Of a stretch of DNA of 64,000 nt, positions 7,047 through 21,354 are shown piece by piece (positions within the stretch are counted from its first letter, which is position 1; the number at the start of each line of letters is the position of its first letter). Under the pieces are notes generated by a model. The model saw nothing but the letters and a program-made list of their open reading frames with translations. It was not told the DNA's origin and made no database searches. The stretch comes from Brucella gallinifaecis (GTDB taxonomy: Bacteria; Pseudomonadota; Alphaproteobacteria; Rhizobiales; Rhizobiaceae). The DNA lies in NCBI RefSeq assembly GCF_006476605.1, contig NZ_ML636809.1:1-64000 (forward strand). Reading direction: 5' to 3'. A program made the translations under genes and the position numbers.

Positions 7047-7095
7047 GTCCTGAGCCTAATCTCCCAATCGGAGCAGGAAAATTTCTGTATCGCGT

Positions 7096-7121
7096 CCGCC
7101 GCCCTTGGCGGCGGGTTCTTT
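7096..7121 (+). terminator. GC-rich hairpin terminator
   Basis: CCGCCGCC, loop CTT, GGCGGCGG, then GTTCTTTTC. It lies between the IS remnant (plus strand) and the 3' end of the FAD oxidoreductase gene (minus strand); the T-run favours plus-strand reading. Confidence 0.7.
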
Positions 7122-7144
7122 TCATAACTACTTTTTCAAGGAGT

Positions 7145-8275
7145 TTATCGTGAGGAGAACCGCTCCGGGCGGAACGTTTCCAGCAAGGGATGCTCGGCGC
7201 CAGTGGCGATCTCGTAGGCAAGCAGTTCGCCCACGATGAGGCCGAGCGTCGCACCACTGTGGCTAAAGGCTACATAATAGCCTGGAACGGCTTTCAAGGC
7301 GCCAATCACAGGCTCACCGTCTCCGGGGATCGGCTTTTCGCCGACGCCAATCGAAGCAAGCTCGAGCGCTGGATTGCCCTCCATTACCTTCGCCGCTTCG
7401 GCAAGAAGGGTTGAAGCGACGTTATTGTCGATTTCATAACTACCGTTGGGGAGCACCGTAACGCCTTCATCGGCCGCCCAATCTGCATCCAGCGAGAATA
7501 TTCCACCCGGCGCAGGGCGTACGGCGACACGCGGCGTGTTGAGGACAGCACGTAACGGATGAGCGAGCGGCTTTGTCTGGACGAGAAGGGCCAGGAGGGT
7601 ACTGTCACTCATCGTTTGTCCGGTTTCCGCTACCATTCGCGGGACGGCTGGCCCCGTCGCCAGCACAGCGGCATCTGCCGCGAAGCGGTTACCCACAGCG
7701 GTTTCAGCCCCCACTGCACGAGCACCTTCAATCACGATCCGGGCCTGCCCCTGGTTCGTTACTAGAACGCCCCCAAGCGCGGCAAACTCCTCAAGAAGCA
7801 GATTTATAAGTGAGGGCAGATCGACCCAGCCTTCGCCAGGATTGAAAATAGCGCCCTGTGGCGTTACCGCATTAGCTGCCACCCCCGGGGTGACACGCGC
7901 AACATCGGATGCCGAAAGTCGCTGCGCATCATAAACAAGCGAGACCTCGTGGCGATAAGCGGCATCGATCTCATTGCGCTCATCATCGGCATCCCAGGTC
8001 AAGCCGCCATTAAAGCGCAGCCACTTGGCATCCGGAAAGCGCGCCGAGAGTGTTCGATATCGGTCGATTCCGGCCATGCGCAGACGATGATAGGGCTCCG
8101 AACGCATGCGCGATGAGTTTAGCCAGGACAGTGAGCGGCCCGATGCCCCATTCGCCGGCGGACCGTCATTGATGATAGTCACGCGAATGCCGCGACGAGC
8201 AAGCTGTACCCCAGTAGAAACGCCGAAAATACCGGCGCCGATGATGACGGCCGAAGAGATGATGGTATCTGTCAT
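7145..8275 (-). CDS. FAD-dependent amine/amino-acid oxidoreductase (DAO family)
   Basis: ATG at 8275 follows AGAGGATAATGAA. The 376-residue product has an N-terminal Rossmann motif (AVIIGAGIFGVSTGVQLARR), the substrate-side beta-sheet domain, and a C-terminal GYYVAFSHSGATLGLIVGEL that closes the FAD site, as in sarcosine, glycine and D-amino acid oxidases. Amadoriases (fructosyl-amino acid oxidases) share this fold, which fits the FrlB/FrlC/FrlD-like neighbours. It is the last gene of the minus-strand unit whose operator is at 11465, after a 235-base gap. The true substrate is unknown; oxidation of a secondary amine derived from an Amadori compound is an inference. Confidence 0.8.
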   Translation of the reverse strand: MTDTIISSAVIIGAGIFGVSTGVQLARRGIRVTIINDGPPANGASGRSLSWLNSSRMRSEPYHRLRMAGIDRYRTLSARFPDAKWLRFNGGLTWDADDERNEIDAAYRHEVSLVYDAQRLSASDVARVTPGVAANAVTPQGAIFNPGEGWVDLPSLINLLLEEFAALGGVLVTNQGQARIVIEGARAVGAETAVGNRFAADAAVLATGPAVPRMVAETGQTMSDSTLLALLVQTKPLAHPLRAVLNTPRVAVRPAPGGIFSLDADWAADEGVTVLPNGSYEIDNNVASTLLAEAAKVMEGNPALELASIGVGEKPIPGDGEPVIGALKAVPGYYVAFSHSGATLGLIVGELLAYEIATGAEHPLLETFRPERFSSR

Positions 8276-8510
8276 TTCATTATCCTCTAATTGTACGATC
8301 AAGGTGGTCAGCAATCTTCCTAGCGACCGCTGACAGCGGAGCGGATAAGCGCGATAACGACCCGACACCGTTGTCCGCCTGTTTATCCGCTCGGCGACGC
8401 GGCAGATAGGTTGAACCGAAACATCGCAGAGGCCAGTTGCATTATCTTGAAGACGCAGATTCTACAGCGCGCCTCCGTCGCCGACGCATCCGCTTAGGTA
8501 TTAAGACACT

Positions 8511-10568
8511 TCAGTACTGTATCCCCAGCCGCAGAGCGTCTAGCATGGCTGCATGAACCGACCGGCTGCTGACAGCATCGCCGATCCTGTGCAGTTCAAA
8601 GCCGGTGGACGTTGGGGTGCGCAACGGAGCTGGCCCAACCAGGGTTTTGATGTCGGTGACACCATCATTTGTTGAAAGCGGGCGCAATGCATCGAAGAGG
8701 TCGTTCACGGGCAGCGTGCCATGCTCGACGATGACCTGCCCGTGGATCTCGCGGAATTCTCGGCCTGTCAGCGCATGACGGAGAACTACTTCGCGCTGCC
8801 CCGTCTGTCCGCCTACCGAGACCAGTTCATATTCCAGCAACACGCGTACCTCCTGTTCGGCGAGCGCCTTGCGATAGGTGATGCTCGAATGATGCTCCAT
8901 CTCTGCAGCAATAGAGGGGTCGCGGGCAACGAAAGTCACTTTCTTGTCTGCGGCTGCAATTTCTACGGCGACCGCGGGGGCAGGATGGCGACCGGTGGCA
9001 TCGTAGATCAGCACGTCGTCGGCGAGTAACGAGGGGTTTCCGAGCGCATCGAAGGCGCTGAGGCATAGATCGCTGCCGACAACCGAACCGAAATCCGGAA
9101 CACCACCGGTCGCGATGACGACGAGGTTCGGTTTCTCGGCAAGAACATCTGCAGCTTCCGCATAGATATTAAACCGCACATCAACGCCGAGACGGCTCAG
9201 CTCCGCGATGCGCCAATCGACAATGCCGGTCAAATCGCGACGAAGCCGCGCTTTCGCGGCCAGAACTAGCTGTCCGCCTAATCGATTGGCCGCCTCGAGT
9301 AACACAACCTTGTGTCCCCGCTCCGCTAGCACCCGCGCCGCCTCAAGTCCTGCCGGACCACCACCCACGACGACCGCCTTGCACCCCGCCTGCGGAGAGC
9401 GTTCGATCACCTGTGGTAACCAGGTCTCGCGGCCCGTTGCCGGATTATGAATGCAATGCACCGGACGGTAGAGACAGTGCGAAGCACCGACGCAGGGACG
9501 AACCTGCGCTTCACGCCCCTCCTGGAGCTTGTTGACAATCTGCGGGTCAGCCATATGCGCGCGCGTCATACCGACCATATCGACCAGTCCCGCTTCAACC
9601 GCGTGGCGTGCCGTTGCAACATCCGCGATCTTGGCTGCGTGGAAGACCGGTAGATCCGTATGCTTCTTAAACGCTCCAACTTGGTGCAGCCACGGCGCCG
9701 AGGCAGCTGTCATATCGGGGATGTTGTAGACGAGCAGATTAAGACGCGTGTCGAAACGGCCGAAAATACAGTTGAAAAAATCGACTAGCCCCTCGCGCTC
9801 GAGCATGTTGGCAACCGCAACCGCCTCGGTGAAGTTCAGGCCGTTCTCGTGATCTTCATCGATCGTGTAGCGGATACCGACCGGATAATCGCTGCCGACT
9901 TCGTGTCGGATTTCCTCATAGACCATGCGCAGGAAGCGCATCCGGTTTTCAAGCGAGCCGCCAAATTCATCCGTACGGCGATTGACCATCGGCGACAGAA
10001 ACTGTCCGATCAGATGGCCGCCGGTCATCGTCTCGATGCCGTCAAGTCCGCCCGCGCGCGCGCGCCGCGCCGCCTGACCAAAGTCGCGTACAATGCGTGC
10101 GATATCATGGCGGTCCATCTCATGAGCGAAGCTGCGGTTATAATCTTCGCGCGAATGGGAGGGGCCAAGCGCTGGGAGCCAGTCGCCAACAGTGGCGTTA
10201 GCCCGCCGGCCTACATGGGAGATTTGACACATGAGTGCCGCACCGTGGCTATGGATTCGTTCGGAAAAGGCGCGGAACACAGGGATGACGGCATCGCTTG
10301 ACACATCAAGCTGTGTGCCACCCCAACTTGAATCTGCCGAAACACGCGCTGAGCCACCGAACATTGTCAAGGCGAGCCCGCCCTTCGCCTTCTCCTCGTG
10401 ATAGCGCTGATAGGCATCAAGCGGATAACCACCTTCGTCGAGAGCGGTCTCGTGGCTGGTGCTCATAATCCGATTGCGTAGGGTCAACCGACCAAGCTGT
10501 AGCGGCATCAGCAACGGATCGGCCCTTTTTGTCGACGAAGCGACCAAGTTTTTCTCTTCCATCTCCAT
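8511..10568 (-). CDS. NADH:flavin oxidoreductase of the trimethylamine dehydrogenase / 2,4-dienoyl-CoA reductase type
   Basis: This 685-residue two-part enzyme starts with an FMN TIM barrel at residues 15-370 (RNRIMSTSHETALDEGG, QISHVGRRANA, GIETMTGGHLIGQFLSP). A cysteine cluster follows (CVGASHC, then C after six residues, with a further nearby Cys) for a 4Fe-4S centre. The C-terminal FAD/NAD domain starts at VVVGGGPAGLEAARVLAERG. The active-site pattern resembles N-dealkylating members (trimethylamine, dimethylglycine or N-methylproline demethylases) more than the enoyl reductase. It is 6 bases downstream of the epimerase-like gene and clearly cotranscribed with it. Oxidative removal of an N-substituent is a reasonable inference. 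Confidence 0.8.
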   Translation of the reverse strand: MEMEEKNLVASSTKRADPLLMPLQLGRLTLRNRIMSTSHETALDEGGYPLDAYQRYHEEKAKGGLALTMFGGSARVSADSSWGGTQLDVSSDAVIPVFRAFSERIHSHGAALMCQISHVGRRANATVGDWLPALGPSHSREDYNRSFAHEMDRHDIARIVRDFGQAARRARAGGLDGIETMTGGHLIGQFLSPMVNRRTDEFGGSLENRMRFLRMVYEEIRHEVGSDYPVGIRYTIDEDHENGLNFTEAVAVANMLEREGLVDFFNCIFGRFDTRLNLLVYNIPDMTAASAPWLHQVGAFKKHTDLPVFHAAKIADVATARHAVEAGLVDMVGMTRAHMADPQIVNKLQEGREAQVRPCVGASHCLYRPVHCIHNPATGRETWLPQVIERSPQAGCKAVVVGGGPAGLEAARVLAERGHKVVLLEAANRLGGQLVLAAKARLRRDLTGIVDWRIAELSRLGVDVRFNIYAEAADVLAEKPNLVVIATGGVPDFGSVVGSDLCLSAFDALGNPSLLADDVLIYDATGRHPAPAVAVEIAAADKKVTFVARDPSIAAEMEHHSSITYRKALAEQEVRVLLEYELVSVGGQTGQREVVLRHALTGREFREIHGQVIVEHGTLPVNDLFDALRPLSTNDGVTDIKTLVGPAPLRTPTSTGFELHRIGDAVSSRSVHAAMLDALRLGIQY

Positions 10569-10574
10569 ATCCGC

Positions 10575-11414
10575 CTATGCCAAACTGAGGGTTTTGCGCA
10601 TGGCCTCGACGCATTGTTTCAGCGGCGCAGTCGGATCGACGTTGTATTTCCAGTTCGTCAGTTCGATCGTCAACGAACCCTCGTAATTCTGGCTCCGCAG
10701 ATAGGTGACCAGCTGATCAAGATCGATGATGCCCTCGCCCCAAGCAAGATGGCTGCCGCCAGCATCGGAATCGGTGAAATGAACATGGGCGACACGGCCA
10801 GCAAGATGGGTAAAATAATCCTGTGGCGTCTCATGGGTCATCACTGCGCCGGCGACATCATACACCGCATGCAATGCTGGACTGCCGAGCTTGTCCATCA
10901 GCTGGCGGATTTCACGTGCCGATCGGATGATGTTGGCAAAGGCATCCGGCAGTGACTCCATCCACAGATCGACACCGAGCTTCTGAGCACGATCACAGAG
11001 GATGCCCATGGAATCTACGCAACGTGCCAATGCCTGTTCGGCCGGTTCGTCGCGGTAACCGCCACCAGCGGTCACCAGAAGAGCCGGGGCTCCACATTCG
11101 GTAGCAAATTCCATTGATTCCAGAAAATAGCGCAGCGAACGGTCGCGCAATTCGGGTTCCTTAGCCGAGATATTGATGGGATAGATGCATTGCTCCGGTG
11201 TGAAGGCCACAATCTCGAGCCCCATGCCGCGCACTTTTTGCCGCAAGGCCCGCGCGTCGGCGAGGGTCTTGTCGCCGATATAAAAATGGGGAGCCGCGGC
11301 CCAAAGCTCGATGCGCGAGACACCAGCATCGCAGACATCGGCCAGAAATCGGTCCATCGTATGTCGTATATAGTGAAAATTCATAACGCTGATATTGCGT
11401 TCATCCAGTGGCAT
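10575..11414 (-). CDS. Sugar (phosphate) isomerase/epimerase, FrlC/xylose-isomerase-like TIM barrel
   Basis: ATG at 11414 follows GGAGGAAT (spacing 7); the upstream open frame is not needed. The 279-residue product is an AP-endonuclease-2-type TIM barrel with metal-ligand positions in WMESLPD, AVYDVAGAVMTH, VAHVHFTDSD and the terminal SLTIELTNW. Fructoselysine 3-epimerase FrlC and L-ribulose-5-phosphate 3-epimerases belong to this family, and the SIS and PfkB neighbours favour an FrlC-like role, i.e. bringing a stereoisomeric sugar adduct to the form used by the kinase. It is the first gene of the minus-strand operon and has a LacI-type palindrome 51 bases before its start. Confidence 0.75.
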   Translation of the reverse strand: MPLDERNISVMNFHYIRHTMDRFLADVCDAGVSRIELWAAAPHFYIGDKTLADARALRQKVRGMGLEIVAFTPEQCIYPINISAKEPELRDRSLRYFLESMEFATECGAPALLVTAGGGYRDEPAEQALARCVDSMGILCDRAQKLGVDLWMESLPDAFANIIRSAREIRQLMDKLGSPALHAVYDVAGAVMTHETPQDYFTHLAGRVAHVHFTDSDAGGSHLAWGEGIIDLDQLVTYLRSQNYEGSLTIELTNWKYNVDPTAPLKQCVEAMRKTLSLA

Positions 11415-11464
11415 GATCGGTATTCCTCCATTAGCCGTCCGTGCGGCGATTCTTATCCATTTAT

Positions 11465-11476
11465 GAGAACGTTCTC
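11465..11476. promoter_or_regulatory. LacI-type operator, copy 1
   Basis: Perfect 12-base palindrome GAGAACGTTCTC with a central CG, as expected for a LacI-family site, 51 bases upstream of the epimerase-like gene (minus strand). Three near-identical copies occur elsewhere in this locus only. Confidence 0.75.
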
Positions 11477-11512
11477 TGTTCACGGCGCAAACAGTTTCAC
11501 TTTGTTGGGGGT

Positions 11513-12997
11513 TCAAGACGTCCGAAGAGCGAATTCTCTCACTGTCTCTTCGAAGAAAGCGGCAACCTGGACAGCCTCGTCTTCCTTTGTCCATCCGAGA
11601 TGTGGTGCGGCCAGTTTTGCCGCCCTTTCCGCGTGGCGCCGGCCGAGATCCGGCTCCCAGCCGACAGAAAGACGACGGCGCAGGATGTCCGACAGCGAAC
11701 GCGCCTGCTCGTTGAGGATGGCATAAGCGATGGAGGCTTCGGTGACGCGATTCATATCCGGAGACGGGGGCAATGGTGGATCGAGCGGATGTGACGAGCC
11801 GGATGGTTTCAGTCGACGACGAACAGCGCGCGTCAATCGCCGTCCGGCATCGCGGTGGGTCATCAGCAAACCGCCGGTGAAGGTAAAGACATTTGGCAGG
11901 CCATCATCTGTCAGGTCGTGCTCGCGGACAGAAGGCGTGGCGCTTCTGCCGTTCCCGGAAAGGCTGCGCGGCCGCACGCCGGCCCATGCATATACCACAT
12001 CCTCGCGCTTCAAGCCGAAGCTTGGAAACAGGCGGCCGAGTTGATCAAGAACGGCAGATATTTCCGCCTCCGTCGCGCGAAACCCTTCCGGCCGGTAATC
12101 CGAAACGGAATCCCAAGGGCCGACATAATGAAGCTCACCCCAAGGGATCAGATAGAAGGGTGCCCCCGCCTCGGTCACGGTCTCGAAGCCGAGACCGCGC
12201 AGTCTCTCGGGCAGTTGAACGACGATATTGGTGCCTTTTTCACCGATGTTCTTTCGGATATGTGGCACCCCAGCCAAAGCAGTGACCTTATCGATCCAGA
12301 CGCCGGCACAATTCACGACCGCCCGAACCAGAATATCGCGAGATCCATCAGCGGCCGCGAGCGTCACCCGCCAGAGATCGCCTTGTCGCGCCAGCGCCGT
12401 CACCGCCGTATGGTTCAGCGCCTCCATGCCGATTGCGCGTGCCTTATTGATCGTATCAACGACGATGCGCTCTGGCCAATGATATTGATATTCGGTGAAA
12501 CACATCGCCCCGCGAATATCTTCAAGCCCTGCCATGCCCTGAAGCGCTGGGTGCATCTGCGCGTCTTTAGCCGACAGGATGCGAAGGTTGAGCGGCACCT
12601 GGCCGCCGTCGCTGGCCGCCATCAGGCGAAAGGCCAGTTGCGCCTTCCAGCGTGGGATAGCGTTTTCCGGCGTCAGCGGAACGATGAAGGTAATGGGCTT
12701 CACCCGCTCGGGCGCAAGTCGCACGAATTCCGCTCGTCCCCGCATCGCGCGCCGCATGAGACCCAAGCAATCCAATGCACTACGTGGATGGGCGAGAAAC
12801 GCTGCGATCGAGCCACTAGCGGCGGAGAGATAACCAAGTCCACAATGCTGAAGACGCGAAGTCTTGCTGGAAGTGCCTGCACCGTAATCGCCTTGCTCGG
12901 CTAGCAACGTGCGATAGCCTGCGGCTGCTAGGTGTTGACCTGCAGCTGCGGCGATGATGCCTCCACCGACAACTACGGTGTCGTAAATATCTCTCAC
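11513..12997 (-). CDS. FAD-dependent oxidoreductase related to glycerol-3-phosphate dehydrogenase (GlpD-like)
   Basis: About 494 residues: Rossmann motif TVVVGGGIIAAAAGQHLA, then the GlpD-type signature TSSKTSRLQHCGLGYL, the long cap domain, AVVNCAGVWIDK, and a C-terminal helical region (from about 395) like the GlpD tail. There are two possible starts: TTG at 13003 touches the GGGAG site, while GTG at 12997 sits 6 bases after it, so I use GTG. It is transcribed away from the deglycase gene; a LacI-type operator lies between them. In this setting it could oxidise a phosphorylated sugar fragment or polyol; true glycerol 3-phosphate use is possible but not suggested by the neighbours. Confidence 0.75.
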   Translation of the reverse strand: MRDIYDTVVVGGGIIAAAAGQHLAAAGYRTLLAEQGDYGAGTSSKTSRLQHCGLGYLSAASGSIAAFLAHPRSALDCLGLMRRAMRGRAEFVRLAPERVKPITFIVPLTPENAIPRWKAQLAFRLMAASDGGQVPLNLRILSAKDAQMHPALQGMAGLEDIRGAMCFTEYQYHWPERIVVDTINKARAIGMEALNHTAVTALARQGDLWRVTLAAADGSRDILVRAVVNCAGVWIDKVTALAGVPHIRKNIGEKGTNIVVQLPERLRGLGFETVTEAGAPFYLIPWGELHYVGPWDSVSDYRPEGFRATEAEISAVLDQLGRLFPSFGLKREDVVYAWAGVRPRSLSGNGRSATPSVREHDLTDDGLPNVFTFTGGLLMTHRDAGRRLTRAVRRRLKPSGSSHPLDPPLPPSPDMNRVTEASIAYAILNEQARSLSDILRRRLSVGWEPDLGRRHAERAAKLAAPHLGWTKEDEAVQVAAFFEETVREFALRTS

Positions 12998-13037
12998 GCT
13001 CAACTCCCGTCAGTCGTAGCAACAGGCCTCAATATGT

Positions 13038-13049
13038 GAGAACGTTCGC
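13038..13049. promoter_or_regulatory. LacI-type operator, copy 2
   Basis: GAGAACGTTCGC, one base from the perfect palindrome, in the divergent region between the GlpD-like gene (minus) and the deglycase gene (plus). Confidence 0.65.
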
Positions 13050-13098
13050 AAAATTTCGACCGCGGTGTCAAGACCCGCTTGACGTCGCCACCATGTCT

Positions 13099-13112
13099 AT
13101 AATACGTATTAT
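13099..13112. promoter_or_regulatory. 14-base AT palindrome, possible GntR operator
   Basis: ATAATACGTATTAT is perfectly palindromic and ends 25 bases before the deglycase ATG. The GntR/UTRA regulator of this operon is encoded two genes on, so autoregulation through this site is an inference. It could also overlap the promoter -10 region. Confidence 0.4.
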
Positions 13113-13137
13113 AACGTCATATAGAAAGGTACATCCT

Positions 13138-14139
13138 ATGCCCCTCCCTTCCGCCTTTGATGCCGGCGTCGCCGCCACCTTGTCTGCGCTCGACGCAAAG
13201 TCGGTGAAGCATGTATTCTTCATCGCATGCGGTGGCTCCCTGTCGATCATGCATCCGGCAAAATTCCTCCTCGACCAACATTCAACCTTGCCTTCGGATG
13301 TCTATAATGCCGCCGAATTCCTCACCCGCGCGCCGCGCTCGCTCGACAAGAATTCGCTGGTGATTTTGTGTTCGATGACCGGCACCACGAAGGAAACCAC
13401 GGCCGCCGCTGAATTCGCCAGGTCTAAAGGCGCCACCACCATTGGACTGACTGTAGAGCCCTCTTCTCCGCTTGCCAAAGCCGTCAATCACGTCGTCGGC
13501 TTTGAAGCGCCTTATACGACCGGCGTAGCGATCGAGGCGAAGGACAGCAACTACGCGCGAATATACCAGCTCATCATGGGCCTTGTTGCCCTGACTGGCG
13601 GCGAGGATCTCACTGAAACGCTCATCAGCAGCCTTTCGGCCTTGCAGCCCGCGATTGACCGCGCTCAGGTAACGTTCGCACCAAAGTTCGAAGATTATGC
13701 CCCGCGCTTTGCCAAAGAAGACGTCATCTATACGGTGGCCAGTGGGGCGAGCTATGGTGCGGCCTATTCCTTTGCCATCTGTGTGCTGATGGAAATGCAA
13801 TGGATCAACAGCCAAGCTATTCACGCCAACGAGTTCTTCCATGGCCCCTTCGAAGTGCTGGACAAAAACCGCGCCTTCATCTTGATGAAGGGGCTCGATA
13901 GTACCCGGGCGCTTGAAGAACGTGCAGACGAATTTTTGCATCGGTTCGGCTCGCCTGAGAACATCCTGGTTCTCGACGCTGAGAAGCTTGATCTCTCCGG
14001 TATCGACCCACGTTTCCGGGGCAATGTCGTGCCGCTGATCTTCTTCGACACGCTCTGGCGTTTCGCATATAAGATTGCTGACCTACGCAAGCATGAAATG
14101 CTTGCGGCGCGACGCTACATGAAGAAGATCACCTACTGA
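13138..14139 (+). CDS. SIS-domain sugar-amine deglycase, FrlB-like
   Basis: The ATG at 13138 is preceded by GAAAGG; the longer upstream frame crosses the operator and is unlikely. The 333-residue protein has two SIS sugar-isomerase domains (FIACGGSLSIMHPAK with the phosphate-binding serines; LVILCSMTGTTKETTAAAEF; a second at ASGASYGAAYSFA) and ends in RRYMKKITY, the C-terminal style of FrlB. FrlB splits fructoselysine 6-phosphate into lysine and glucose 6-phosphate; the related SocD-type enzymes act on santhopine-type Amadori opines. The catalytic EFFHGPFE block is present. It is followed within 20 bases by the GntR gene. Amadori deglycase is well supported; the amino acid released is unknown. 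Confidence 0.82.
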   Translation: MPLPSAFDAGVAATLSALDAKSVKHVFFIACGGSLSIMHPAKFLLDQHSTLPSDVYNAAEFLTRAPRSLDKNSLVILCSMTGTTKETTAAAEFARSKGATTIGLTVEPSSPLAKAVNHVVGFEAPYTTGVAIEAKDSNYARIYQLIMGLVALTGGEDLTETLISSLSALQPAIDRAQVTFAPKFEDYAPRFAKEDVIYTVASGASYGAAYSFAICVLMEMQWINSQAIHANEFFHGPFEVLDKNRAFILMKGLDSTRALEERADEFLHRFGSPENILVLDAEKLDLSGIDPRFRGNVVPLIFFDTLWRFAYKIADLRKHEMLAARRYMKKITY

Positions 14140-14158
14140 TTGAGCCTGGAAGGGGCGG

Positions 14159-14869
14159 ATGGACGAACAATCGAAGCTTTTGCCGCTCTATGAACAGGTC
14201 CGGCGCGCGATCATGACCGGTATCGAAACCGGCCAGTTCCCGGTGGGCAGCTTCCTGCCCGCCGAACCCGAGCTGATGTCGCTTTACGGCGTCAGCAGGA
14301 TCACTCTTCGGCGAGCAATAGGCGATCTATGCGCCGAAGGGCTGCTGCAACGGCAGCAGGGGCGCGGTACTGTCATCATGCCGCGCAAGGTGCGTCAGAC
14401 GCTCATTTCCCTATCAGGCTTTTCCGAAACGATGGACGGGCTTGGCCGAAAGGCCAGTCATCGCATTCTGTCACGGACTGATAATCCCGATGCACCTGCC
14501 GTTCGCGAGCGTCTGCACGTACAGGTGCTGGTGCGTTTCGAAAGGCTGCTGGAGGATAACGATCGACCGATGACGCTCGAAACGCTCTGGTTCGATCCCA
14601 GCCGTTTTCCCGAGGTGATCGAGCCTGTTGCGGCTGGCGGTTCCTTTTTCTCCGCGTTGCGCGACAAGGCTGGCATTGTGCCTGCCCACGCGGAGCGGCA
14701 GATTGATGTCGGCCTTGCACTACCGGCTGAACGCGACATCCTTTCGGTCACCGCCACACAACCCGTCTACAGGATCGAGAAAATCGTCACCGATTCCGAA
14801 GGGCGCCCGCTCGCCCTGTCACAACTCGTCACTCCAAGCCATCTGGTCAGCTACACGATCAAGACCTGA
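14159..14869 (+). CDS. GntR-family regulator with UTRA domain (HutC/FrlR type)
   Basis: This 236-residue protein has an N-terminal winged helix (LYEQVRRAIMTGIETGQFPVG, then RITLRRAIGDLCAEG with the GRGT wing at 45-85) and a UTRA ligand-binding domain from about residue 90 (RIEKIVTDSEGRPLALSQ at the end). FrlR, the repressor of fructoselysine genes, has this architecture. The GGAAGGGGCGG ribosome site directly precedes the ATG. Operon position between the deglycase and the cyclodeaminase-like gene suggests it senses a phosphorylated sugar-amine intermediate. Confidence 0.85.
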   Translation: MDEQSKLLPLYEQVRRAIMTGIETGQFPVGSFLPAEPELMSLYGVSRITLRRAIGDLCAEGLLQRQQGRGTVIMPRKVRQTLISLSGFSETMDGLGRKASHRILSRTDNPDAPAVRERLHVQVLVRFERLLEDNDRPMTLETLWFDPSRFPEVIEPVAAGGSFFSALRDKAGIVPAHAERQIDVGLALPAERDILSVTATQPVYRIEKIVTDSEGRPLALSQLVTPSHLVSYTIKT

Positions 14870-14879
14870 AAGGTTCGAC

Positions 14880-15818
14880 ATGCATGTATTCGATGCCACT
14901 TCCGTTCACGCGGCGCTTCCGTGGACATTTTTGATCGAGGCTTTGCGCAAGGCTCATTGCGGGCCGGTGCCTGCTTGCGATGTCATCGTGCAGTCAGATC
15001 CCGCTGGCGGCAATGCCCAATTCGTCACCTTGCCCGGTTGGGCGCCCAATGGCCCTGTCGTCGTGAAGATGGTCGGCGTGTTTCCGCACAATGAAGGCCT
15101 TACACCTCCCCAGCCCGCAGTTCAGGGGTTGGTAGCGCTGTTCGACGGCACGACCGGCGGGCCGCTTCTCGTAGCGGACGGTGCGGCAATGACCGCGCGG
15201 AAAACCGCAGCCGATTCCGCCTTAGGTGCTACCATCCTCGCCCGCGCGAATGTCGAAAAACTTTTGGTCGTCGGGGCTGGCGCGCTCGCGCCGCATTTTG
15301 CCGAGGCGCATCTGACGGCGCGACCCTCCCTACGACAGGTCACGATCTGGAATCGCACTCCGGCACGTGCTGAGGCCGTTGCAGCCCGGTTGCGGGAAAA
15401 AGGCATCGACGCTGTCGTTAGCGATGATCTCGACCACGCCACCGCCTGTGCCGATGTCATATCCTGCGTCACCATGTCGGATAAGGCGTTGATCAAGGGT
15501 GCGTTCCTGCGGCCGGGCACCCACCTCGACCTCGTAGGTGCCTACCTTCCCCACCTTCGCGAGGCAGACGACATTGCCCTTGCACGCGGCACAATCTTCG
15601 TCGACAGCCGCAACAACATGCAGGGTGGTGGCGATCTTTCGCAAGCGGTCGCGTCGGGTACGATCAGCTGGGATGCGGTCAAAGCCGATCTTTTCGAGCT
15701 GATGCAAGGTAAAAAGGCAGGCCGAACCAGCGTAGATGAGATTACCGTGTTCAAGAACAATGGCGGTGCCCATCTCGACCTTTTCACAGCCTCCGCCTTA
15801 TCCCATACCTTGAGCTGA
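14880..15818 (+). CDS. Ornithine cyclodeaminase / mu-crystallin family protein
   Basis: 312 residues, starting 10 bases after the GntR stop. The NAD-binding motif is VVGAGALAPHFAEAH (about 120-135), preceded by the substrate arginine/lysine region (AMTARKTAADSA) and followed by DVISCVTMSDKAL and GTHLDLVGAY. The family includes ornithine cyclodeaminase, alanine dehydrogenase-like and ketimine reductases, and opine-catabolic members. In Agrobacterium such genes sit in opine regions. A job here could be processing the amino acid released by deglycation or reducing a cyclic imine made by the oxidases; neither is proven. Confidence 0.8.
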   Translation: MHVFDATSVHAALPWTFLIEALRKAHCGPVPACDVIVQSDPAGGNAQFVTLPGWAPNGPVVVKMVGVFPHNEGLTPPQPAVQGLVALFDGTTGGPLLVADGAAMTARKTAADSALGATILARANVEKLLVVGAGALAPHFAEAHLTARPSLRQVTIWNRTPARAEAVAARLREKGIDAVVSDDLDHATACADVISCVTMSDKALIKGAFLRPGTHLDLVGAYLPHLREADDIALARGTIFVDSRNNMQGGGDLSQAVASGTISWDAVKADLFELMQGKKAGRTSVDEITVFKNNGGAHLDLFTASALSHTLS

Positions 15819-15825
15819 CAATTAA

Positions 15826-15855
15826 GCGTTTCCGCGGTACCATCGGCGGAAACGC
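15826..15855. terminator. 10-bp perfect hairpin between convergent units
   Basis: GCGTTTCCGC, 10-base loop, GCGGAAACGC, placed between the cyclodeaminase-like gene (plus) and the ABC ATPase gene (minus). It lacks a strong T-run, so it may serve both directions weakly. Confidence 0.55.
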
Positions 15856-15916
15856 ATCTACCATTTTCAACCCTCTTCTGGTCATGCAGACGCTTCACAT
15901 AGGTTCCGAAAATGCG

Positions 15917-16705
15917 TTACGCATCAGCCAGAACCCGTGCCAGGAATGCTCTCGTACGTTCATGTTGCGGACGCGTCAACACGATCGCCGGCTTTCCCTG
16001 TTCCACAATGACTCCTCCATCCATGAAGATCAGGTGATCGGCGACATCGCGAGCAAATCCCATTTCGTGCGTGACGACGACCATAGTCATACCATCATCA
16101 GCGAGCTGACGCATCACGGCAAGAACCTCGCCTACAAGTTCCGGGTCGAGCGCTGAAGTCGGCTCGTCGAAAAGCATCACGTCGGGCTTCATTGCCAGAG
16201 AACGGGCGATTGCCGCTCGCTGCTGTTGGCCTCCTGAAAGCTGAACGGGATAATAGTTTGCTCGCTCCTTCATGCCGACACGCTCCAGAAGAACCATCGC
16301 TTCTTGAATGGCGGTAGCACGCGGCACTCGCTTCACGAGAATCGGCGCTTCTATAACGTTTTCGAGTACGGTCTTGTGTGGAAAGAGATGGAACCCCTGA
16401 AACACCATCCCCATACGCTGGCGCTGACGGGCGAGTTCATTGAAGCTCATTTCATAAAGCTTCGCGCCTTTCCAGCGCACGCCTACTGGTTCGCCGTTGA
16501 GGAAAATAGCGCCAGATGTAGGCTTTTCGAGATAATTCAAACAACGGAGGAGCGTGCTCTTGCCCGAGCCGGACGGTCCAACGATGCAGGTCACATCTCC
16601 GCGGTTTACCGCAACATCAATGCCTCGCAGCACCTCATGTGCGCTGAAGCTTTTTCGTAGCTTTTCCACCTTCAGAAGTGGCTGAGCATTGGTCTGGTTA
16701 TTCAT
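15917..16705 (-). CDS. Polar amino-acid ABC transporter ATP-binding protein (GlnQ/HisP type)
   Basis: 262 residues with Walker [13 protein letters not shown], signature LSGGQQQR, Walker [13 protein letters not shown] and the switch histidine in [10 protein letters not shown]. The insertion with [13 protein letters not shown] and the Q-loop [12 protein letters not shown] are typical of polar amino-acid importers. Its ATG overlaps the stop of the permease gene, so the three transporter genes form one minus-strand operon led by the binding protein. The related SocA/SocB system imports Amadori opines, which fits the locus. Confidence 0.92.
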
Positions 16706-17619
16706 GATAAGGTCTCCTGCTGCCGCGCGAAGAAACGGAAGAGACCGCCGGAATTCGCTCCAGCACGATGTTCGGATTTCAGCCGGCGCTCGACCGCATG
16801 TTCGATGGCGGTCAATATGGTGGTAAGCACGAGGTACCAGATGGTTGCTACAAGCAACAGCGGCACCGTCTGATAGGTGCGGGCATAAACCATCTGGGCC
16901 GAATAAAGCAGGTCTGGCAAGGCGAGTACCGAGACGAGCGAAGTGAATTTCAGCATCGAGATCGTATCGTTGCCAATCGGTGGAATGACAATACGCAATG
17001 CCTGCGGCAGCACGATGCGGCGAAGCGTCTGACCGCGCGTCATACCGAGCGTCGCGGCTGCCTCAGTCTGGCCGATGTTGATGGCCTGAATGCCCGCGCG
17101 GATCATTTCAGCGGCATAGGCACTTTCAGTAAAGGCAAGCCCCATGATGGCAGCGCTGAAAGGAGTAATGAGCTGGTTGGTGTTCCAGGAGAGGAGCTTC
17201 GGCCCGCCGAACGGGATGCCAATTGAGAGTTCTGGCAGGAGCAGAGCAAGGTTATACCAAAAAATCATCTGGACCAACGGAGGCACACCGCGGAAGAACC
17301 AGATCCAGCCCCAGCTGACCGACCGAAAAATGGGACTGGTTGAAAGGCGCATGATAGCCAGCACCACGCCGAGGGCAAGGCCAAGTACCATGGCGAGCAC
17401 GGTGAGTAGCAATGTCATACCCAGACCCGAGAGGATGGCGGAGCTGAACATATATTCAGCAACCACACTCCACTGCATGTTCCTGTTGGTAAACAATAGT
17501 TGCAAGAAGACGACTGCAAGAATGGCAAGCGCCACGCCACCGATCCAATGACCGATCCTTGGCACCGCGATAGGCTTTGTCTCGTGGATTGAGGGCGGTG
17601 GCAGTGGTTTTTCAGACAT
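16702..17619 (-). CDS. Amino-acid ABC transporter permease (HisM/GlnP type)
   Basis: I place the start at 17619 ([15 protein letters not shown]), six bases after an AAGGAATTAGG region; an upstream ATG at 17682 has no ribosome site. About 305 residues with an N-terminal anchor helix near 25-45, the [20 protein letters not shown] segment, and the EAA loop ([21 protein letters not shown]). One permease gene only, so it would act as a homodimer, as in GlnP systems. Its 4-base overlap with the ATPase gene shows coupling. Confidence 0.9.
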
Positions 17620-17710
17620 CCTAATTCCTTGCTGCTCTTCTTCAACCTTGCGGAGCCGGCCCACGGTTCCGCGGGCCGCCATTTGGCTTTTGTTCCGGAA
17701 GCCGGACGCC

Positions 17711-18556
17711 TTAGAGATCGGCGGGGTTCTCTTCAGTAATCAACAATGCCTTACTTAGCATCCCGTTGTCGTTCAGGCCCCACTTGGCCATGATCTTCTC
17801 ATAGGTGCCGTCGTCGATCATCGACTGGATCGTGTTCGTCAGCACTTGGCCGAGCGGATCTCCTTTGCGCACGCCGATGCAACTGTTCACCGGCGACAAA
17901 ACCAGTTCGGACACCCTCATGTCGCTGGTCTGTTTTGCCATATAGGTCAGCTTGACTGAACCACCTACCGTGGCTTGGGCGCGATCAGAGCGCACGGCAA
18001 GTTCGGCCTGCGCCTGTGTGCCATGCGTCTGCATGAGCACCGGCTTGTCCTTGCATTCATTCGCATTCAGCTTTTCCAAGAGACCTATGTCCCACGAACC
18101 GTTGAGAACAGCTACCGTCAGACCGCAGACATCGGCTGCGGATTTGATATCAAGCGAGCTTTGCGCGGGATAGGCAAACGAAGTTCCTATTCTCCGTTGC
18201 GACACGAAATCAAGCGCTTTCAAGCGGTCAGCCGTGGTACCGAAAGAAGCGAAACCTGCGTCAAAGCGTTTGGATTGAAGCCCAGGGATAATGGCATCGA
18301 AACTCGTGCCCTCGAAGGTGAACGGCACGCCAAGGCGTGTTTGCATCTCCTTGGCTATGTCGACGCTCCAGCCTTTGAGTTGGCCATCAGCATCCTGATA
18401 TTCGTCCGGCGCCCAGTCATTGAAAACTGCAGCCTTGATACCGTTGTCCTTGTATTCCTGCGTTAGCGCATCGTGCAACGCAGGAATGGCGTCGGCCATG
18501 GCTGGCATTGCCAATGCCGTGCTCAGGACACATCCGGCGAGAATGGATTTAAACAT
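17711..18556 (-). CDS. Periplasmic substrate-binding protein of the amino-acid ABC importer
   Basis: The ATG at 18556 follows AAGGAGG. A signal peptide (MFKSILAGCVLSTALAMPAMA) precedes a two-lobe SBP family 3 domain with the characteristic GWSVDIAKEMQTRLGVPFTFE and FDAIIPGLQSKRFDAGFASF. The acidic ligand-anchoring residues near the cleft appear kept. As first gene of the transport operon it lies directly behind a LacI-type palindrome at 18628. Substrate inferred from context: a fructosyl-amino acid or other sugar-amine. Confidence 0.9.
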   Translation of the reverse strand: MFKSILAGCVLSTALAMPAMADAIPALHDALTQEYKDNGIKAAVFNDWAPDEYQDADGQLKGWSVDIAKEMQTRLGVPFTFEGTSFDAIIPGLQSKRFDAGFASFGTTADRLKALDFVSQRRIGTSFAYPAQSSLDIKSAADVCGLTVAVLNGSWDIGLLEKLNANECKDKPVLMQTHGTQAQAELAVRSDRAQATVGGSVKLTYMAKQTSDMRVSELVLSPVNSCIGVRKGDPLGQVLTNTIQSMIDDGTYEKIMAKWGLNDNGMLSKALLITEENPADL

Positions 18557-18627
18557 GACGTCCTCCTTGTTGTGGCTAACCCGATGGGTTCGCATCTGCG
18601 TCCTCTGGTTCCCCTTGAAAAAGTTTA

Positions 18628-18639
18628 GAGAACGTTCTC
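18628..18639. promoter_or_regulatory. LacI-type operator, copy 3
   Basis: GAGAACGTTCTC, perfect, 72 bases upstream of the binding-protein ATG and about 180 bases upstream of the divergent LacI gene, so it may control both. Confidence 0.75.
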
Positions 18640-18816
18640 ATATAAGAGACACGGACATAACCCGTCCGTCAAGCACCGTTTTATCAAAGCATTGCGCTTA
18701 TGGCCATTGAAAACCGGTGATGATCTGCTAACACCTAAGCAGATATGTCGTTTTCCAACGCCACGTATGATACTATTCTCAGATCGGCGAGTGATAAATG
18801 TGAGAGGAATTGCCAA

Positions 18817-19905
18817 TTGGCTCCGAAAAGCAAAGCGACGATTGCCGATGTTGCGCGTGCAGCAGGGGTTTCCACGGCGACCGCGGGACGTGTGCTCGGC
18901 GGCTATGGTTATACCAGCGAAGACAAGAAGGAACAGGTCCTCAAGGCAGCTCAGCGCCTGGGCTATCAGCCCAACGCACTGGCGCGTAGTCTCATTACCG
19001 GCAAGACCCGCACACTTGGTGTCGTGGCCGGTGACATTCAGAACCCCTTCTACGCTTCAGTCCTGCGTGGCATCTCCAACGTCGCGGAAGCCAATGGCTT
19101 TGGTCTGTTGATTACCAATAGCGATGAAGCCCAGCCCAAGGAAGTTAATTCGGTCGAGCTACTTGCTCGAAAGCAGGTAGACGGGCTGATCGTCACTCCC
19201 AGCGATACGCGCAAAGCGCGACATCTGCATAATCTGCGAGCTATGGGCGTCCCTCTCGTCCTCATCGACCGTGCAGTCGCCGGCTTGGTGGTGGACCGAG
19301 TTGCAACCGACAACGTCACAGCCGCTGAAATTGCTGTACGCCGATTGATCGCTGCCGGACACCGTCGGATCGGCATCGTCGCTGAACTTGTCGATGAAGA
19401 AGGTGGTGGTTTGGAAACCTTCCTCGCTCGGGCGATCTCGGGTGATCCGATCGAAAGCGAAACACTCTATCCCAGCTGGCAACGCCTGCTCGGTTATATT
19501 CGCGCCCATCGGATCGAAGGTCTGCCTGTCGACCCACGCCTGACGCTCCGAGCCGGAAGCTATTCAGCGCTCGCTGCACAGGCTGTTGTGCTCGGTTTAA
19601 TGGCGACTTCCGGAGCACCGACGGCGCTCTTCACAACAGACGGCACCATGTCGGAAGGCACGATGCGTGCGCTCGCGGAAATGAAGCTTTCGATCCCCGA
19701 GAGCATTTCGCTTATCTGCTTCGACGATCTTGACTGGATGAGTTTTCATCGCCCCGGCATCACCACCGTTGCGCAGCCGCGCCTTGCCATGGGGGAAGCC
19801 GCTGCACGGATGCTCCTTGAGCGCATTCGCGGCGAGGATTATCCGCCACGCACCGTTCTTATGCCGGCGGAACTGATCGAGCGCGGTTCTGTCGCACAAC
19901 GCTGA
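18817..19905 (+). CDS. LacI-family transcriptional regulator, probable controller of the sugar-amine locus
   Basis: The helix-turn-helix ATIADVARAAGVSTATAGR begins six residues after a TTG codon at 18817 that is preceded by GAGAGGAA at the right distance; the ATG at 18745 has no ribosome site and would add an unusual tail. 362 residues; hinge helix PNALARSLITGKT, then a periplasmic-binding-like effector domain (TLGVVAGDIQNPFYASVLRG to ICFDDLDWMSFHRPGITTV). The insertion EDKKEQVLKAAQRLGY is normal for the family. Four palindromes of LacI type in this locus make it the natural regulator. The effector is probably the imported compound. Confidence 0.88.
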   Translation: MAPKSKATIADVARAAGVSTATAGRVLGGYGYTSEDKKEQVLKAAQRLGYQPNALARSLITGKTRTLGVVAGDIQNPFYASVLRGISNVAEANGFGLLITNSDEAQPKEVNSVELLARKQVDGLIVTPSDTRKARHLHNLRAMGVPLVLIDRAVAGLVVDRVATDNVTAAEIAVRRLIAAGHRRIGIVAELVDEEGGGLETFLARAISGDPIESETLYPSWQRLLGYIRAHRIEGLPVDPRLTLRAGSYSALAAQAVVLGLMATSGAPTALFTTDGTMSEGTMRALAEMKLSIPESISLICFDDLDWMSFHRPGITTVAQPRLAMGEAAARMLLERIRGEDYPPRTVLMPAELIERGSVAQR

Positions 19906-20103
19906 TTCCGCAAAATCGAGCAAGAAGACCTTCATCGCATGCTGATGCATGACGGCAGTCGCCCAGTTATCTATTAGTGTTCCGCATGCGGACGTGCCTG
20001 TTTTAACGGACGCCAGCACGTCCGCTTATCTCCTCGCAGTTTCTCGGCTCTTCATCGCCCGGTGAAGGAAACCATTTGCCTTTTTCGCTACAGCCCTATA
20101 AAT

Positions 20104-20115
20104 GAGAACGCTCTC
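20104..20115. promoter_or_regulatory. LacI-type operator, copy 4
   Basis: GAGAACGCTCTC, one base from the perfect palindrome and extended to TGAGAACGCTCTCA, 26 bases before the kinase ATG, where a repressor would cover the promoter or early transcript. Confidence 0.7.
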
Positions 20116-20141
20116 AGTTTCTTCTCAGGAGAGCTCGTCTA

Positions 20142-21029
20142 ATGCCCCGTCCCGTCAAAATCCTCGCCTTTGGCGATAATGTCGTTGACTGCTACCGTGA
20201 TCGAAACCTGATGTTTCCAGGCGGAAACTGCGTCAATCATGCCGTTTTTGCGCGCCGTACCGGGGCCGAAACTGCCTATGTGGGTGCCGTATGCGATGAT
20301 GACGCCGGGCGGTTGATCCGGCGCGCATTGATCGAAGAAGGGGTGGACGTCTCCTCGCTACGCGTGGTGTCTGGGCAAACGGCTTATTGCGTGATTGAGA
20401 CGCAAGATGGCGATCGCGTATTCGTCGGCGCCAATCTTGGTGTCTCGATTATCGCACCGTCGAGGGCCGATATTGCTCGACTTTCGGATTTCGACGCCAT
20501 TCACACCGGCCGTTCAAGCCATGTCGACGCCTGGCTGCCCCATTTTGCCGAGATCACGAAAGTGTCCTACGATCTTGCCACCGTACAAGACCCTGCCCGC
20601 ATCGCCCAAATAGCACCGCACTGTTTTCTGATGGCCTGCTCCGCCGGTGGAGGTTCGCGTGAGGAGGCACTTGCGTTAGCTATGAGTGTCCGCACCGCTG
20701 GCGCTCGCTGGAGTCTAGTCACTCGCGGCATCGAAGGGGCTATCCTCGCCGGTGACACCGGTGTTTTCGAGGTTCCGGCCAAACCCGTCGACGCCCTCGA
20801 TACGCTCGGAGCCGGTGACACCTATATCGCCAATGTCCTTGTCGGCTTATTGAGCGACCTGAAGCCCGAAACTATCCTTAGGCAAGCAGCAGAAGCTGCT
20901 GCTCATACGTGCCAGATGCACGGCGCTTTTGGACATCAGAGTTCCATGAGCGTGGACCTCACGAACATGATGAGCCTAGAAGAAATTTATCGCGTCACTC
21001 GTCCTGTGAAAGCAGCGGAGGAGGCCTAG
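20142..21029 (+). CDS. PfkB-family sugar kinase, FrlD-like (fructosamine 6-kinase)
   Basis: 295 residues. PfkB motif 1 (PGGNCVNHAVFARRTGAETA) and motif 2 (DTLGAGDTYIANVLVGLL, with the catalytic Asp and anion hole) are intact. The early FGDNVVDCYRD and the late HTCQMHGAFGH closely echo fructoselysine 6-kinase FrlD (GDNCVDIY and a terminal QYHGAW). It would phosphorylate the C6 hydroxyl of an Amadori compound to make the substrate of the FrlB-like deglycase 7 kb away. It is monocistronic and has its own operator. Confidence 0.8.
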   Translation: MPRPVKILAFGDNVVDCYRDRNLMFPGGNCVNHAVFARRTGAETAYVGAVCDDDAGRLIRRALIEEGVDVSSLRVVSGQTAYCVIETQDGDRVFVGANLGVSIIAPSRADIARLSDFDAIHTGRSSHVDAWLPHFAEITKVSYDLATVQDPARIAQIAPHCFLMACSAGGGSREEALALAMSVRTAGARWSLVTRGIEGAILAGDTGVFEVPAKPVDALDTLGAGDTYIANVLVGLLSDLKPETILRQAAEAAAHTCQMHGAFGHQSSMSVDLTNMMSLEEIYRVTRPVKAAEEA

Positions 21030-21354
21030 CGTTATTTGAGCGATCAACCTCAAATGCGAATCCGATTATAGCGCTCTTCGGACATAACTATATTTGCACA
21101 GTTGATGCCGTGTGCATGTTATTCTAGCTATGTCCGGCAGTGTGAAAGGTATTTGCCTCTCCGAGAATCTGAAAAGCGCGTGACGCATTGATTGCCAGTC
21201 AAGATTCTCCCCTCGCTTAACGCGAACATCCGAGCTAAAATTGATACTTATATGGCTTTTTTGGGCGGTCCTGCTCGTAATAAGCATTCGGCCTATCTCA
21301 TGAAAAATGCTGTATCATAATGCTGATGTCACGCCCGATTATGGATCGTTCATC
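21030..21354. other. Intergenic boundary between catabolic locus and stress island
   Basis: No frame with a ribosome site or family resemblance was found. AT content rises relative to the kinase gene. Confidence 0.5.

What the first reader, a model, noticed from the sequence alone, without database searches (positions are those of the whole stretch)
7145..21029. Putative Amadori-compound (fructosyl-amino acid) catabolic locus with an added flavin-oxidase branch
The sequence shows FrlB-like, FrlC-like and FrlD-like proteins, a UTRA-type GntR, a polar amino-acid ABC importer and a LacI regulator in one 14-kb block. Kinase plus deglycase is the known fructoselysine/santhopine route. Unusual extras are a trimethylamine-dehydrogenase-type enzyme, a DAO-family oxidase, a GlpD-like oxidase and an ornithine-cyclodeaminase-like protein, none of which belong to the known frl or soc operons. 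They suggest a second, oxidative way to open N-substituted or branched Amadori compounds, or use of advanced glycation products.
Basis: partly seen in the sequence, partly recalled or inferred. Interest (0 to 1): 0.85.

Follow-up and report, generated by a model that had tools for sequence, protein, structure and literature searches.

The report
Sugar-coated lysine breakdown gene island
This stretch of DNA is a mobile set of genes that most likely lets soil bacteria take up amino acids stuck to sugar (probably lysine), split the sugar off and feed both halves into metabolism; it is a wider and more elaborate version of a known bacterial pathway.

Summary
Three corrections and additions. (1) The DAO oxidase is the known SocD amadoriase (82-83% identical to pAtC58 and F2 copies), left by deletion of socR-A-B-C; it is not foreign to soc. 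(2) A palindrome, TGAGAACGTTCTCA, sits before GlpD-like/SIS, FrlC-TMADH-like, importer/LacI and kinase. These are the only four copies (at most 1 mismatch) in the held 3.7-Mb genome, and the pattern recurs in related loci, so the odd GlpD-like and, through FrlC, TMADH-like genes belong to the same pathway. (3) In 17 of 82 proteobacterial loci the block lies near genes of lysine breakdown via pipecolate (HglS, piperidine-6-carboxylate dehydrogenase, AmaA-like oxidase); the window's genome encodes these elsewhere. The OCD protein, present in 72 of 82, is closest to a pyrroline/piperideine-2-carboxylate reductase model. I infer glycated lysine as main substrate, with OCD feeding pipecolate. The reactions of the GlpD-like and TMADH-like enzymes remain inferred. 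The 14.7-kb island is 99.94% identical in Ochrobactrum chromiisoli, so it moved recently. New variant of a known kind.

The parts
6519..21207 (.). mobile island, 14,689 bp, 99.94% identical in Ochrobactrum chromiisoli YY2X
6480..7046 (+). IS transposase frame (its first bases lie outside the shared stretch) at the left end of the island
   Evidence: an 82% partial match elsewhere in own genome
7145..8272 (-). SocD: fructosyl-amino-acid oxidase (amadoriase), FAD
   Evidence: 82% to the pAtC58 copy (NC_003064), 83% to the A. tumefaciens F2 gene annotated fructosyl amino acid oxidase
8309..8353 (-). remnant of the 3' end of socC; socR-A-B-C missing
   Evidence: alignment to L022 453-1672 and L041
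8511..10568 (-). OYE/TMADH-superfamily flavoenzyme with a three-cysteine motif CVGASHC...C
10575..11414 (-). FrlC-like 3-epimerase (TIM barrel)
11464..11477 (.). LacI-type operator before frlC-TMADH-like
11513..13003 (-). GlpD-like flavoprotein dehydrogenase of a distinct subfamily
13037..13050 (.). LacI-type operator shared by GlpD-like and SIS promoters
13098..13113 (.). perfect 16-bp palindrome TATAATACGTATTATA, candidate GntR operator
13138..14139 (+). SIS fructosamine-6-phosphate deglycase (FrlB type)
14159..14869 (+). GntR/UTRA regulator (FrlR type)
14880..15818 (+). OCD-family reductase, nearest to pyrroline/piperideine-2-carboxylate reductase model
15917..16705 (-). amino-acid ABC importer ATPase
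   Evidence: named in homologues
16702..17682 (-). amino-acid ABC importer permease
   Evidence: named in homologues
17711..18595 (-). family-3 solute-binding protein
18627..18640 (.). LacI-type operator between binding protein and LacI
18745..19905 (+). LacI-family regulator
20103..20116 (.). LacI-type operator before the kinase
20142..21029 (+). PfkB fructosamine 6-kinase (FrlD type)

Best explanation
A horizontally moved catabolic regulon for fructosyl-amino acids, most likely glycated lysine. Likely course: the family-3 binding protein and ABC importer bring in the Amadori compound; the FrlC-like epimerase converts the C3 epimer; the PfkB kinase phosphorylates C6; the SIS deglycase releases glucose 6-phosphate and the free amino acid. 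SocD oxidises part of the substrate directly to glucosone and amino acid. The freed lysine goes to L-pipecolate, the OCD protein supplying the reductase step (piperideine-2-carboxylate to L-pipecolate), and then to aminoadipate, oxoadipate and 2-hydroxyglutarate through an AmaA-like oxidase, piperidine-6-carboxylate dehydrogenase and HglS, which this genome encodes elsewhere. A LacI repressor at TGAGAACGTTCTCA controls kinase, deglycase, importer, FrlC-TMADH-like and GlpD-like together; a GntR regulator at TATAATACGTATTATA adds control of the SIS-GntR-OCD operon. The GlpD-like and TMADH-like flavoenzymes are pathway members, most likely amine/amino-acid-side dehydrogenases (for example lysine to piperideine-2-carboxylate). 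Shown by sequence: gene families, SocD orthology, operator-like sites and their conservation, lysine-gene neighbourhood, mobility. Inferred: every reaction, substrate, effector, direction, and which regulator binds which site.
For: SIS: best PDB relative 3eua, putative fructose-aminoacid-6-phosphate deglycase, 281 bits. Kinase and epimerase best NCBIfam hits FrlD and FrlC. SocD identity. Operators: 4 sites with at most 1 mismatch in the window, shuffle mean 0.01. Promoters with a site (at most 2 mismatches, 250 bp): GlpD-like 24 of 25, SIS 75 of 85, FrlC 23 of 30, binding protein 49 of 50, LacI 53 of 72, kinase 74 of 79, shuffles near 0 (divergent pairs share one site). Scan of 14 genomes and 6 plasmid records: 61 sites, 60 inside the locus by coordinates, 1 outside (G039); backward control 1 in all. 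Lysine link: HglS 702.8 bits (cut-off 550) and piperidine-6-carboxylate DH 803.9 (730) near SIS in Sulfitobacter, AmaA best hit 443 of 600; 17 of 82 loci carry at least one such gene, in several arrangements. Own genome: HglS 751.4, P6CDH 817, AmaA-like 493.1 of 600. OCD in 72 of 82, best NCBIfam pyrroline/piperideine-2-carboxylate reductase 302.9 of 322.
Against: No FrlB/C/D or OCD curated cut-off is met. 65 of 82 loci have no lysine gene in the stretch held, and HglS is absent from 11 of the 26 proteobacterial genomes with the SIS locus that were searched. B. subtilis FrlB/FrlD favour alpha-glycated amino acids in general (PMC12632257, passages). No enzyme for lysine to piperideine-2-carboxylate is proven, and no aminoadipate aminotransferase was looked for in the own genome. 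In the scan none of the lysine genes has the LacI site at its start. FrlC lacks a site in 7 of 30 and LacI in 19 of 72. SocD (0 of 16), TMADH-like (0 of 19) and OCD (0 of 71) have no site of their own; the last two mostly follow FrlC and SIS-GntR, but where TMADH-like stands apart (L027) it has none.
Confidence: 0.6

Rival explanations
1. A general alpha-fructosyl-amino-acid pathway as in B. subtilis; the lysine genes are neighbours by chance or serve an unrelated need.
For: SIS lies next to Bacillales rows in the tree; PMC12632257 passages say B. subtilis FrlB/FrlD favour alpha-glycated amino acids; 65 of 82 loci lack lysine genes in the stretch held.
Against: HglS near SIS in 7 of 82 loci, in six named genera and one unnamed Rhizobiales genome, against 46 genomes with HglS of 151 in the window's family: by my rough estimate about 0.1 expected in the 1.58 Mb held. 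OCD of the piperideine/pyrroline reductase type in 72 of 82.
Confidence: 0.25
2. The GlpD-like enzyme oxidises the C2 hydroxyl of N-(1-deoxyhexityl)-amino acids (mannopine-like opines) to the ketose, making the locus an opine-type funnel into Amadori compounds.
For: GlpD chemistry (secondary alcohol next to CH2 to ketone; recalled). E. coli GlpD Lys354 kept in 4 of 4 GlpD-type rows and replaced in 16 of 16 GlpD-like rows, Arg54 replaced in 11 of 16, so a non-phosphorylated substrate is likely (roles of these residues recalled). Operator control; two GlpD-like genes of only 36-40% identity in other SIS loci also have a site upstream (L090, L076; sites, gene coordinates).
Against: The same subfamily stands with TMADH-like genes, and in three of four stretches with amino-acid importers, where no SIS or kinase gene is annotated; no mannopine context seen.
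Confidence: 0.15
3. One reading: TMADH-like and GlpD-like enzymes are a second oxidative way to open N-substituted Amadori compounds or use AGEs.
For: The TMADH superfamily includes enzymes that oxidise C-N bonds (recalled); ETF-like genes lie beside the Microvirga locus; regulon membership.
Against: SocD already provides that chemistry; no Cys at the covalent-FMN position and a changed Fe-S motif (meaning recalled); best solved relatives are an enoate and a dienoyl-CoA reductase.
Confidence: 0.12
4. The SIS/kinase pair acts on an unrelated amino sugar, not on Amadori compounds.
For: All three Frl-like proteins score below the curated Frl cut-offs; long reference branches leave tree placement unsure.
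Against: Three separate best hits to FrlB, FrlC and FrlD, the 3eua match, adjacent SocD, and repeated placement near the soc operon.
Confidence: 0.04

Closest known systems
Bacillus subtilis frlBONMD operon (alpha-fructosamine kinase-deglycase)
   Same: SIS (46% identical over two pieces of an interrupted frame on L032), PfkB kinase, GntR regulator, ABC import; a DAO frame precedes the SIS frame on L032 (25% to SocD)
   Different: importer of the amino-acid type, extra LacI control, OCD, FrlC-like, GlpD-like and TMADH-like genes
E. coli frlABCDR (fructoselysine)
   Same: deglycase, 3-epimerase, kinase and GntR kinds all present (25-34% identity)
   Different: ABC importer in place of FrlA; LacI control; oxidases; OCD; far below the FrlB/C/D cut-offs
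Agrobacterium socR-ABCD (santhopine, pAtC58)
   Same: SocD amadoriase 82% identical; in A. tumefaciens F2 the two loci adjoin
   Different: the window keeps only socD and a socC tail; the core here is kinase-deglycase
Ti-plasmid mannopine region with SIS and kinase (MocD/MocE; names recalled)
   Same: SIS and kinase pair side by side
   Different: 33% and 38% identity; other importer and enzymes
Pipecolate branch of lysine catabolism (AmaA, P6CDH, HglS)
   Same: genes lie near 17 of 82 related loci and occur in the own genome
   Different: not inside the window block

Membership tests
Frl kinase-deglycase (FrlB/FrlD) | curated NCBIfam cut-offs for E. coli-type FrlB, FrlD, FrlC | tested here: not met
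   101.9/430, 150/247, 128.1/305; best hits nonetheless
Frl kinase-deglycase (FrlB/FrlD) | SIS and PfkB proteins group with Frl-type rows in trees | tested here: inconclusive
   searches are compatible and join the window copies to proteobacterial and Bacillales rows; the Frl/Fra/Moc reference branches are long and the tool warns of long-branch joins
Frl kinase-deglycase (FrlB/FrlD) | active-site Glu and His (FraB E214/H230, recalled) | tested here: met
   E219 and H235 invariant in 9 aligned SIS proteins; mapping; the roles are recalled and were not confirmed in papers
Frl kinase-deglycase (FrlB/FrlD) | growth on fructosyl-amino acids | not testable with these tools
   needs bench work
SocD amadoriase | full-length orthologue of pAtC58 SocD | tested here: met
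   about 82% over at least 95% of the protein
SocD amadoriase | within socABCD operon | tested here: not met
   only socD and a socC tail remain; best SocC match elsewhere in the genome 42%
GlpD glycerol-3-phosphate dehydrogenase | curated cut-off and Lys354 | tested here: not met
   112.5/352; Lys replaced in 16 of 16
Trimethylamine dehydrogenase | Cys for covalent FMN; four-Cys 4Fe-4S motif (recalled) | tested here: not met
   Glu in 15 of 15 locus-associated copies; canonical second Cys is Ala in 24 of 24 rows
Ornithine/lysine cyclodeaminase | catalytic Asp of the GGD-type motif (recalled) | tested here: inconclusive
   motif reads GAY in at least 95% of 72 rows; no cyclodeaminase sequence was aligned
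Pyrroline/piperideine-2-carboxylate reductase (NF004793) | curated cut-off 322 | tested here: not met
   302.9, best hit by far (next 151.2)
Lysine-pipecolate pathway in own genome | HglS and P6CDH above cut-off | tested here: met
   751.4/550 and 817/730; AmaA-like 493.1/600 is below

The most novel reading that the evidence does not exclude
A dedicated glycated-lysine regulon widespread in Alphaproteobacteria that couples Amadori deglycation to the pipecolate route, in which a GlpD-like flavoprotein (a subfamily that has lost the phosphate-site lysine) acts as a lysine or glycated-amine dehydrogenase, an OCD protein makes pipecolate, and an OYE/TMADH-type enzyme with a three-cysteine cluster handles the cyclic amine.
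Probability: 0.3. Interest if true: 0.72.

Novelty: new variant of a known kind. Interest (0 to 1): 0.56.

Why it matters
It gives a testable function and a likely control site to a gene block seen here in 82 proteobacterial loci (some from the same species). If right, fructosyl-lysine from decaying plant or protein matter is a regular bacterial food outside the gut, and two uncharacterised flavoenzyme subfamilies (GlpD-like, OYE/TMADH-like) gain a pathway. Enzymes that act on glycated lysine are of practical use for measuring or removing glycation.

Tried and rejected
DAO as an unknown extra: rejected, it is SocD. Fructosyl-proline as substrate (suggested by the OCD model name and one N-methylproline-demethylase label): set aside once HglS/P6CDH/AmaA neighbours appeared; papers with fructosyl-proline, bacteria, catabolism and Amadori: none. 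EryB/EryC-like reading of GlpD-like plus TIM barrel: dropped, the three GlpD-type proteins of the own genome keep Lys354 and the GlpD-like does not. GlpD-like as replacement for AmaA: both in 1 of 82 loci, p = 0.053, rows not independent, left open. Structure prediction of the GlpD-like protein was tried five times and never accepted, so no fold search was done. Inverted repeats of 14 bp or more at the IS end: none.

Literature searches of the held open-access library: none of the listings shows an alphaproteobacterial Amadori-pipecolate locus. Most subscription papers are not held (the key soc paper PMC145320 is not).

Rows dropped before counts: L042 (near copy of the window), L054 (same record as L025) and Firmicutes L113, L114, L118-L121; the 82 include the window and nine plasmid stretches. 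One search used 85 loci (window, L022-L030, L043-L117, so L054 and two Firmicutes too) and, for each gene, only matches of 45% identity or more. Rows with stops were left out of trees and alignments. One search covered 29 of 30 handles (L119 not held). and 97 used E-value limits of 1e-10 and 1e-15, of 1e-100.
Full report
What is there. The block consists of a minus-strand set GlpD-like (11513-13003), FrlC-like (10575-11414), OYE/TMADH-like (8511-10568) and SocD (7145-8272); a divergent plus-strand set SIS, GntR, OCD (13138-15818); an amino-acid ABC importer on the minus strand (15917-18595); a LacI gene (18745-19905) and a PfkB kinase (20142-21029). The window is part of a 3.74-Mb, 36-contig genome.

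Amadori core. The SIS protein's best solved relative is 3eua, named putative fructose-aminoacid-6-phosphate deglycase (281 bits). It is 46% identical to two pieces of an interrupted SIS frame on a B. subtilis record, which I take to be frlB from recalled gene order. NCBIfam ranks FrlB, FrlD and FrlC first for SIS, kinase and TIM barrel, all below cut-off. In the tree of 45 SIS rows the window copy lies in a proteobacterial clade next to Bacillales copies; reference sequences (E. coli FrlB, Klebsiella FraB, Ti-plasmid SIS) have long branches and their places are unsure. The kinase tree of 30 rows (quick method) has the same weakness.

SocD. The DAO protein is about 82% identical to the pAtC58 gene that follows a Gfo/Idh/MocA gene, an ABC gene, a binding protein and a divergent LacI gene, matching the socR and socABCD set beside repABC described in PMC4231840 (passages seen). 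It is 83% identical to the gene annotated fructosyl amino acid oxidase in A. tumefaciens F2, where the soc operon adjoins this same block. The alignment runs on for about 45 bp into the end of socC, and a 20-bp match near 8468-8487 would fit the end of the F2 LacI gene, though it is not significant by itself (E 0.15). The window copy is therefore probably a deletion remnant of the F2 arrangement. SocD (60% identity or more) was found in 16 of 82 loci; flanks of 10 kb or less limit this count.

One regulon. Four promoters carry TGAGAACGTTCTCA with one mismatch: 11464, 13037, 18627, 20103; the shuffled window has 0.01 on average. With three mismatches allowed the pattern is not unusual (6 against 2.69; 7 of 100 shuffles reach 6), so the claim rests on the close matches and on conservation. 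In 85 loci, sites with at most two mismatches lie within 250 bp upstream of GlpD-like 24 of 25, SIS 75 of 85, FrlC 23 of 30, binding protein 49 of 50, LacI 53 of 72 and kinase 74 of 79 starts, and of none of 16 SocD, 19 TMADH-like, 47 GntR, 71 OCD, 69 ATPase and 51 permease starts, most of which are downstream genes; divergent genes share one site, so these counts are not independent. A scan of 14 genomes and 6 plasmid records gave 61 sites, 60 inside the locus by coordinates and one elsewhere (G039); all four in the window's genome are in the block; the backward control gave 1. Two GlpD-like proteins of only 36-40% identity in other SIS loci (L076, L090) have a site about 120 and 30 bp upstream (sites, gene coordinates). 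A second palindrome, TATAATACGTATTATA at 13098, recurs before SIS (within 260 bp, up to 4 mismatches) in 37 of 52 loci that have a GntR gene at 40% identity or more, 23 of them with at most 2 mismatches, and in 1 of 31 that do not; that one (L092) is a contig that ends inside SIS, before any GntR gene. Fifteen GntR loci lack it. That LacI and GntR bind these sites is inferred.

The amino acid. Of 82 proteobacterial loci, OCD (50% identity or more) is in 72, kinase in 78, LacI in 69, and the ABC or TRAP importer in 72. Neighbouring genes in Sulfitobacter are HglS (702.8 bits, cut-off 550), L-piperidine-6-carboxylate dehydrogenase (803.9, cut-off 730), an aminotransferase and an oxidase closest to AmaA L-pipecolate oxidase (443, cut-off 600, so not formally AmaA). 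Across the 82 loci an AmaA-like gene is near 13, P6CDH near 8, HglS near 7, any of them near 17. The seven HglS loci are in six named genera and one unnamed Rhizobiales genome, and gene order varies. HglS was found in 46 of 151 genomes sampled from the window's family. Taking about 4.8 Mb a genome (my estimate), that is one gene per some 15 Mb, so about 0.1 would be expected in the 1.58 Mb held; this is rough and shared descent is not removed. HglS is present in 15 of 26 proteobacterial genomes holding the SIS locus and 0 of 3 Firmicutes ones. The window's genome has HglS, P6CDH and an AmaA-like gene together on another contig. These are known steps from L-pipecolate to 2-hydroxyglutarate (recalled). 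I infer that the freed amino acid is lysine and that the OCD protein, closest to the pyrroline/piperideine-2-carboxylate reductase model (302.9, cut-off 322), makes pipecolate. Its subfamily carries Lys in the KTAADS stretch in at least 95% of 72 rows, where solved relatives shown have Arg; the role of that Arg is recalled.

The two odd flavoenzymes. The GlpD-like subfamily has lost the Lys354 position of E. coli GlpD in 16 of 16 rows, while 4 of 4 GlpD-type rows (E. coli and three of the own genome) keep it; Arg54 is replaced in 11 of 16. That these bind the phosphate is recalled; if so, the substrate is not phosphorylated. The OYE/TMADH-like protein's best solved relatives are NCR (207.5 bits, an enoate reductase by recall) and 2,4-dienoyl-CoA reductase (199.7); TMADH scores 161. 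It has Glu where TMADH has the flavin-binding Cys (recalled), in 15 of 15 locus-associated copies, and three conserved Cys with Ala at the canonical second Cys in 24 of 24 rows. Outside SIS loci both subfamilies stand within some 8 kb of each other in the four plasmid stretches viewed for this (L036, L037, L038, L040), three of them with an amino-acid importer (not L036), two with an AmaA-like or similar oxidase (L038, L040), one with a pyrroline-reductase-like gene (L037); L039 has TMADH-like with an OCD gene and no GlpD-like. This suggests work on the amino-acid side; it does not prove a reaction.

Mobility. Window 6519-21207 equals an O. chromiisoli contig at 99.94% (9 mismatches in 14,689 bp) while the flanks differ. 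The right flank from about 21189 is 99% identical in two other genomes of the genus, whose best SIS matches are only about 1e-10. In the genus the 100% SIS copy is in 2 of 35 genomes, the window's own included; eleven others have a relative of 54-62% over its main piece (two of them broken), and the rest only about 28-32% identical SIS proteins or weaker matches. GC is 57.1% in the island, 46.7% left, 55.4% right.

Papers. Seen as passages: PMC12632257, PMC8262997, PMC4231840, PMC9609667 (nothing useful), PMC4052901 (LacI regulons; no occurrence of Amadori, fructosyl or opine). Others were seen only as search listings. None of these describes this locus.

Noticed in passing
L045 4184; L023 7128; window 20103: Three Amadori-type LacI regulons found near each other share the half-site TGAGA and differ in the middle four bases: ACGT (this locus), CCGG (soc), TCGA (a second frl-like operon).
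   Followed up: partly
L031 7980-14938; L033 9995-15876: SIS and PfkB genes with hydantoinase/oxoprolinase A and B genes in Priestia and Allorhizobium ampelinum S4: perhaps fructosyl-pyroglutamate use.
   Followed up: no
window 21189-21207: The same right flank is joined to three different left sequences in the window, G016 and G011 at CCAGTCAAGATTC: a possible insertion hot spot.
   Followed up: partly
L025 19102-20798: ETF-like genes (one annotated FAD-binding protein, one ETF beta subunit) lie beside the block in Microvirga sp. VF16, a possible electron acceptor for the TMADH-like enzyme.
   Followed up: no
L023 1-8238, L024 1-6994: A second frl-like operon (SIS, kinase, epimerase, sugar ABC, LacI; an FAD oxidoreductase too in L023) adjoins the block in Rhizobium daejeonense and Shinella.
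   Followed up: no
L026 6442-10857; L025 12784-13402; L013; L014: Broken GlpD-like and TMADH-like frames in S. meliloti ABS7, a broken OCD in Microvirga VF16 and broken SIS genes in two genomes of the genus: parts of the block decay.
   Followed up: no
L039 7443-13525: Aminotransferase, TMADH-like, OCD and aldehyde dehydrogenase genes in a row without an annotated SIS gene in Rhizobium sp. ACO-34A.
   Followed up: partly
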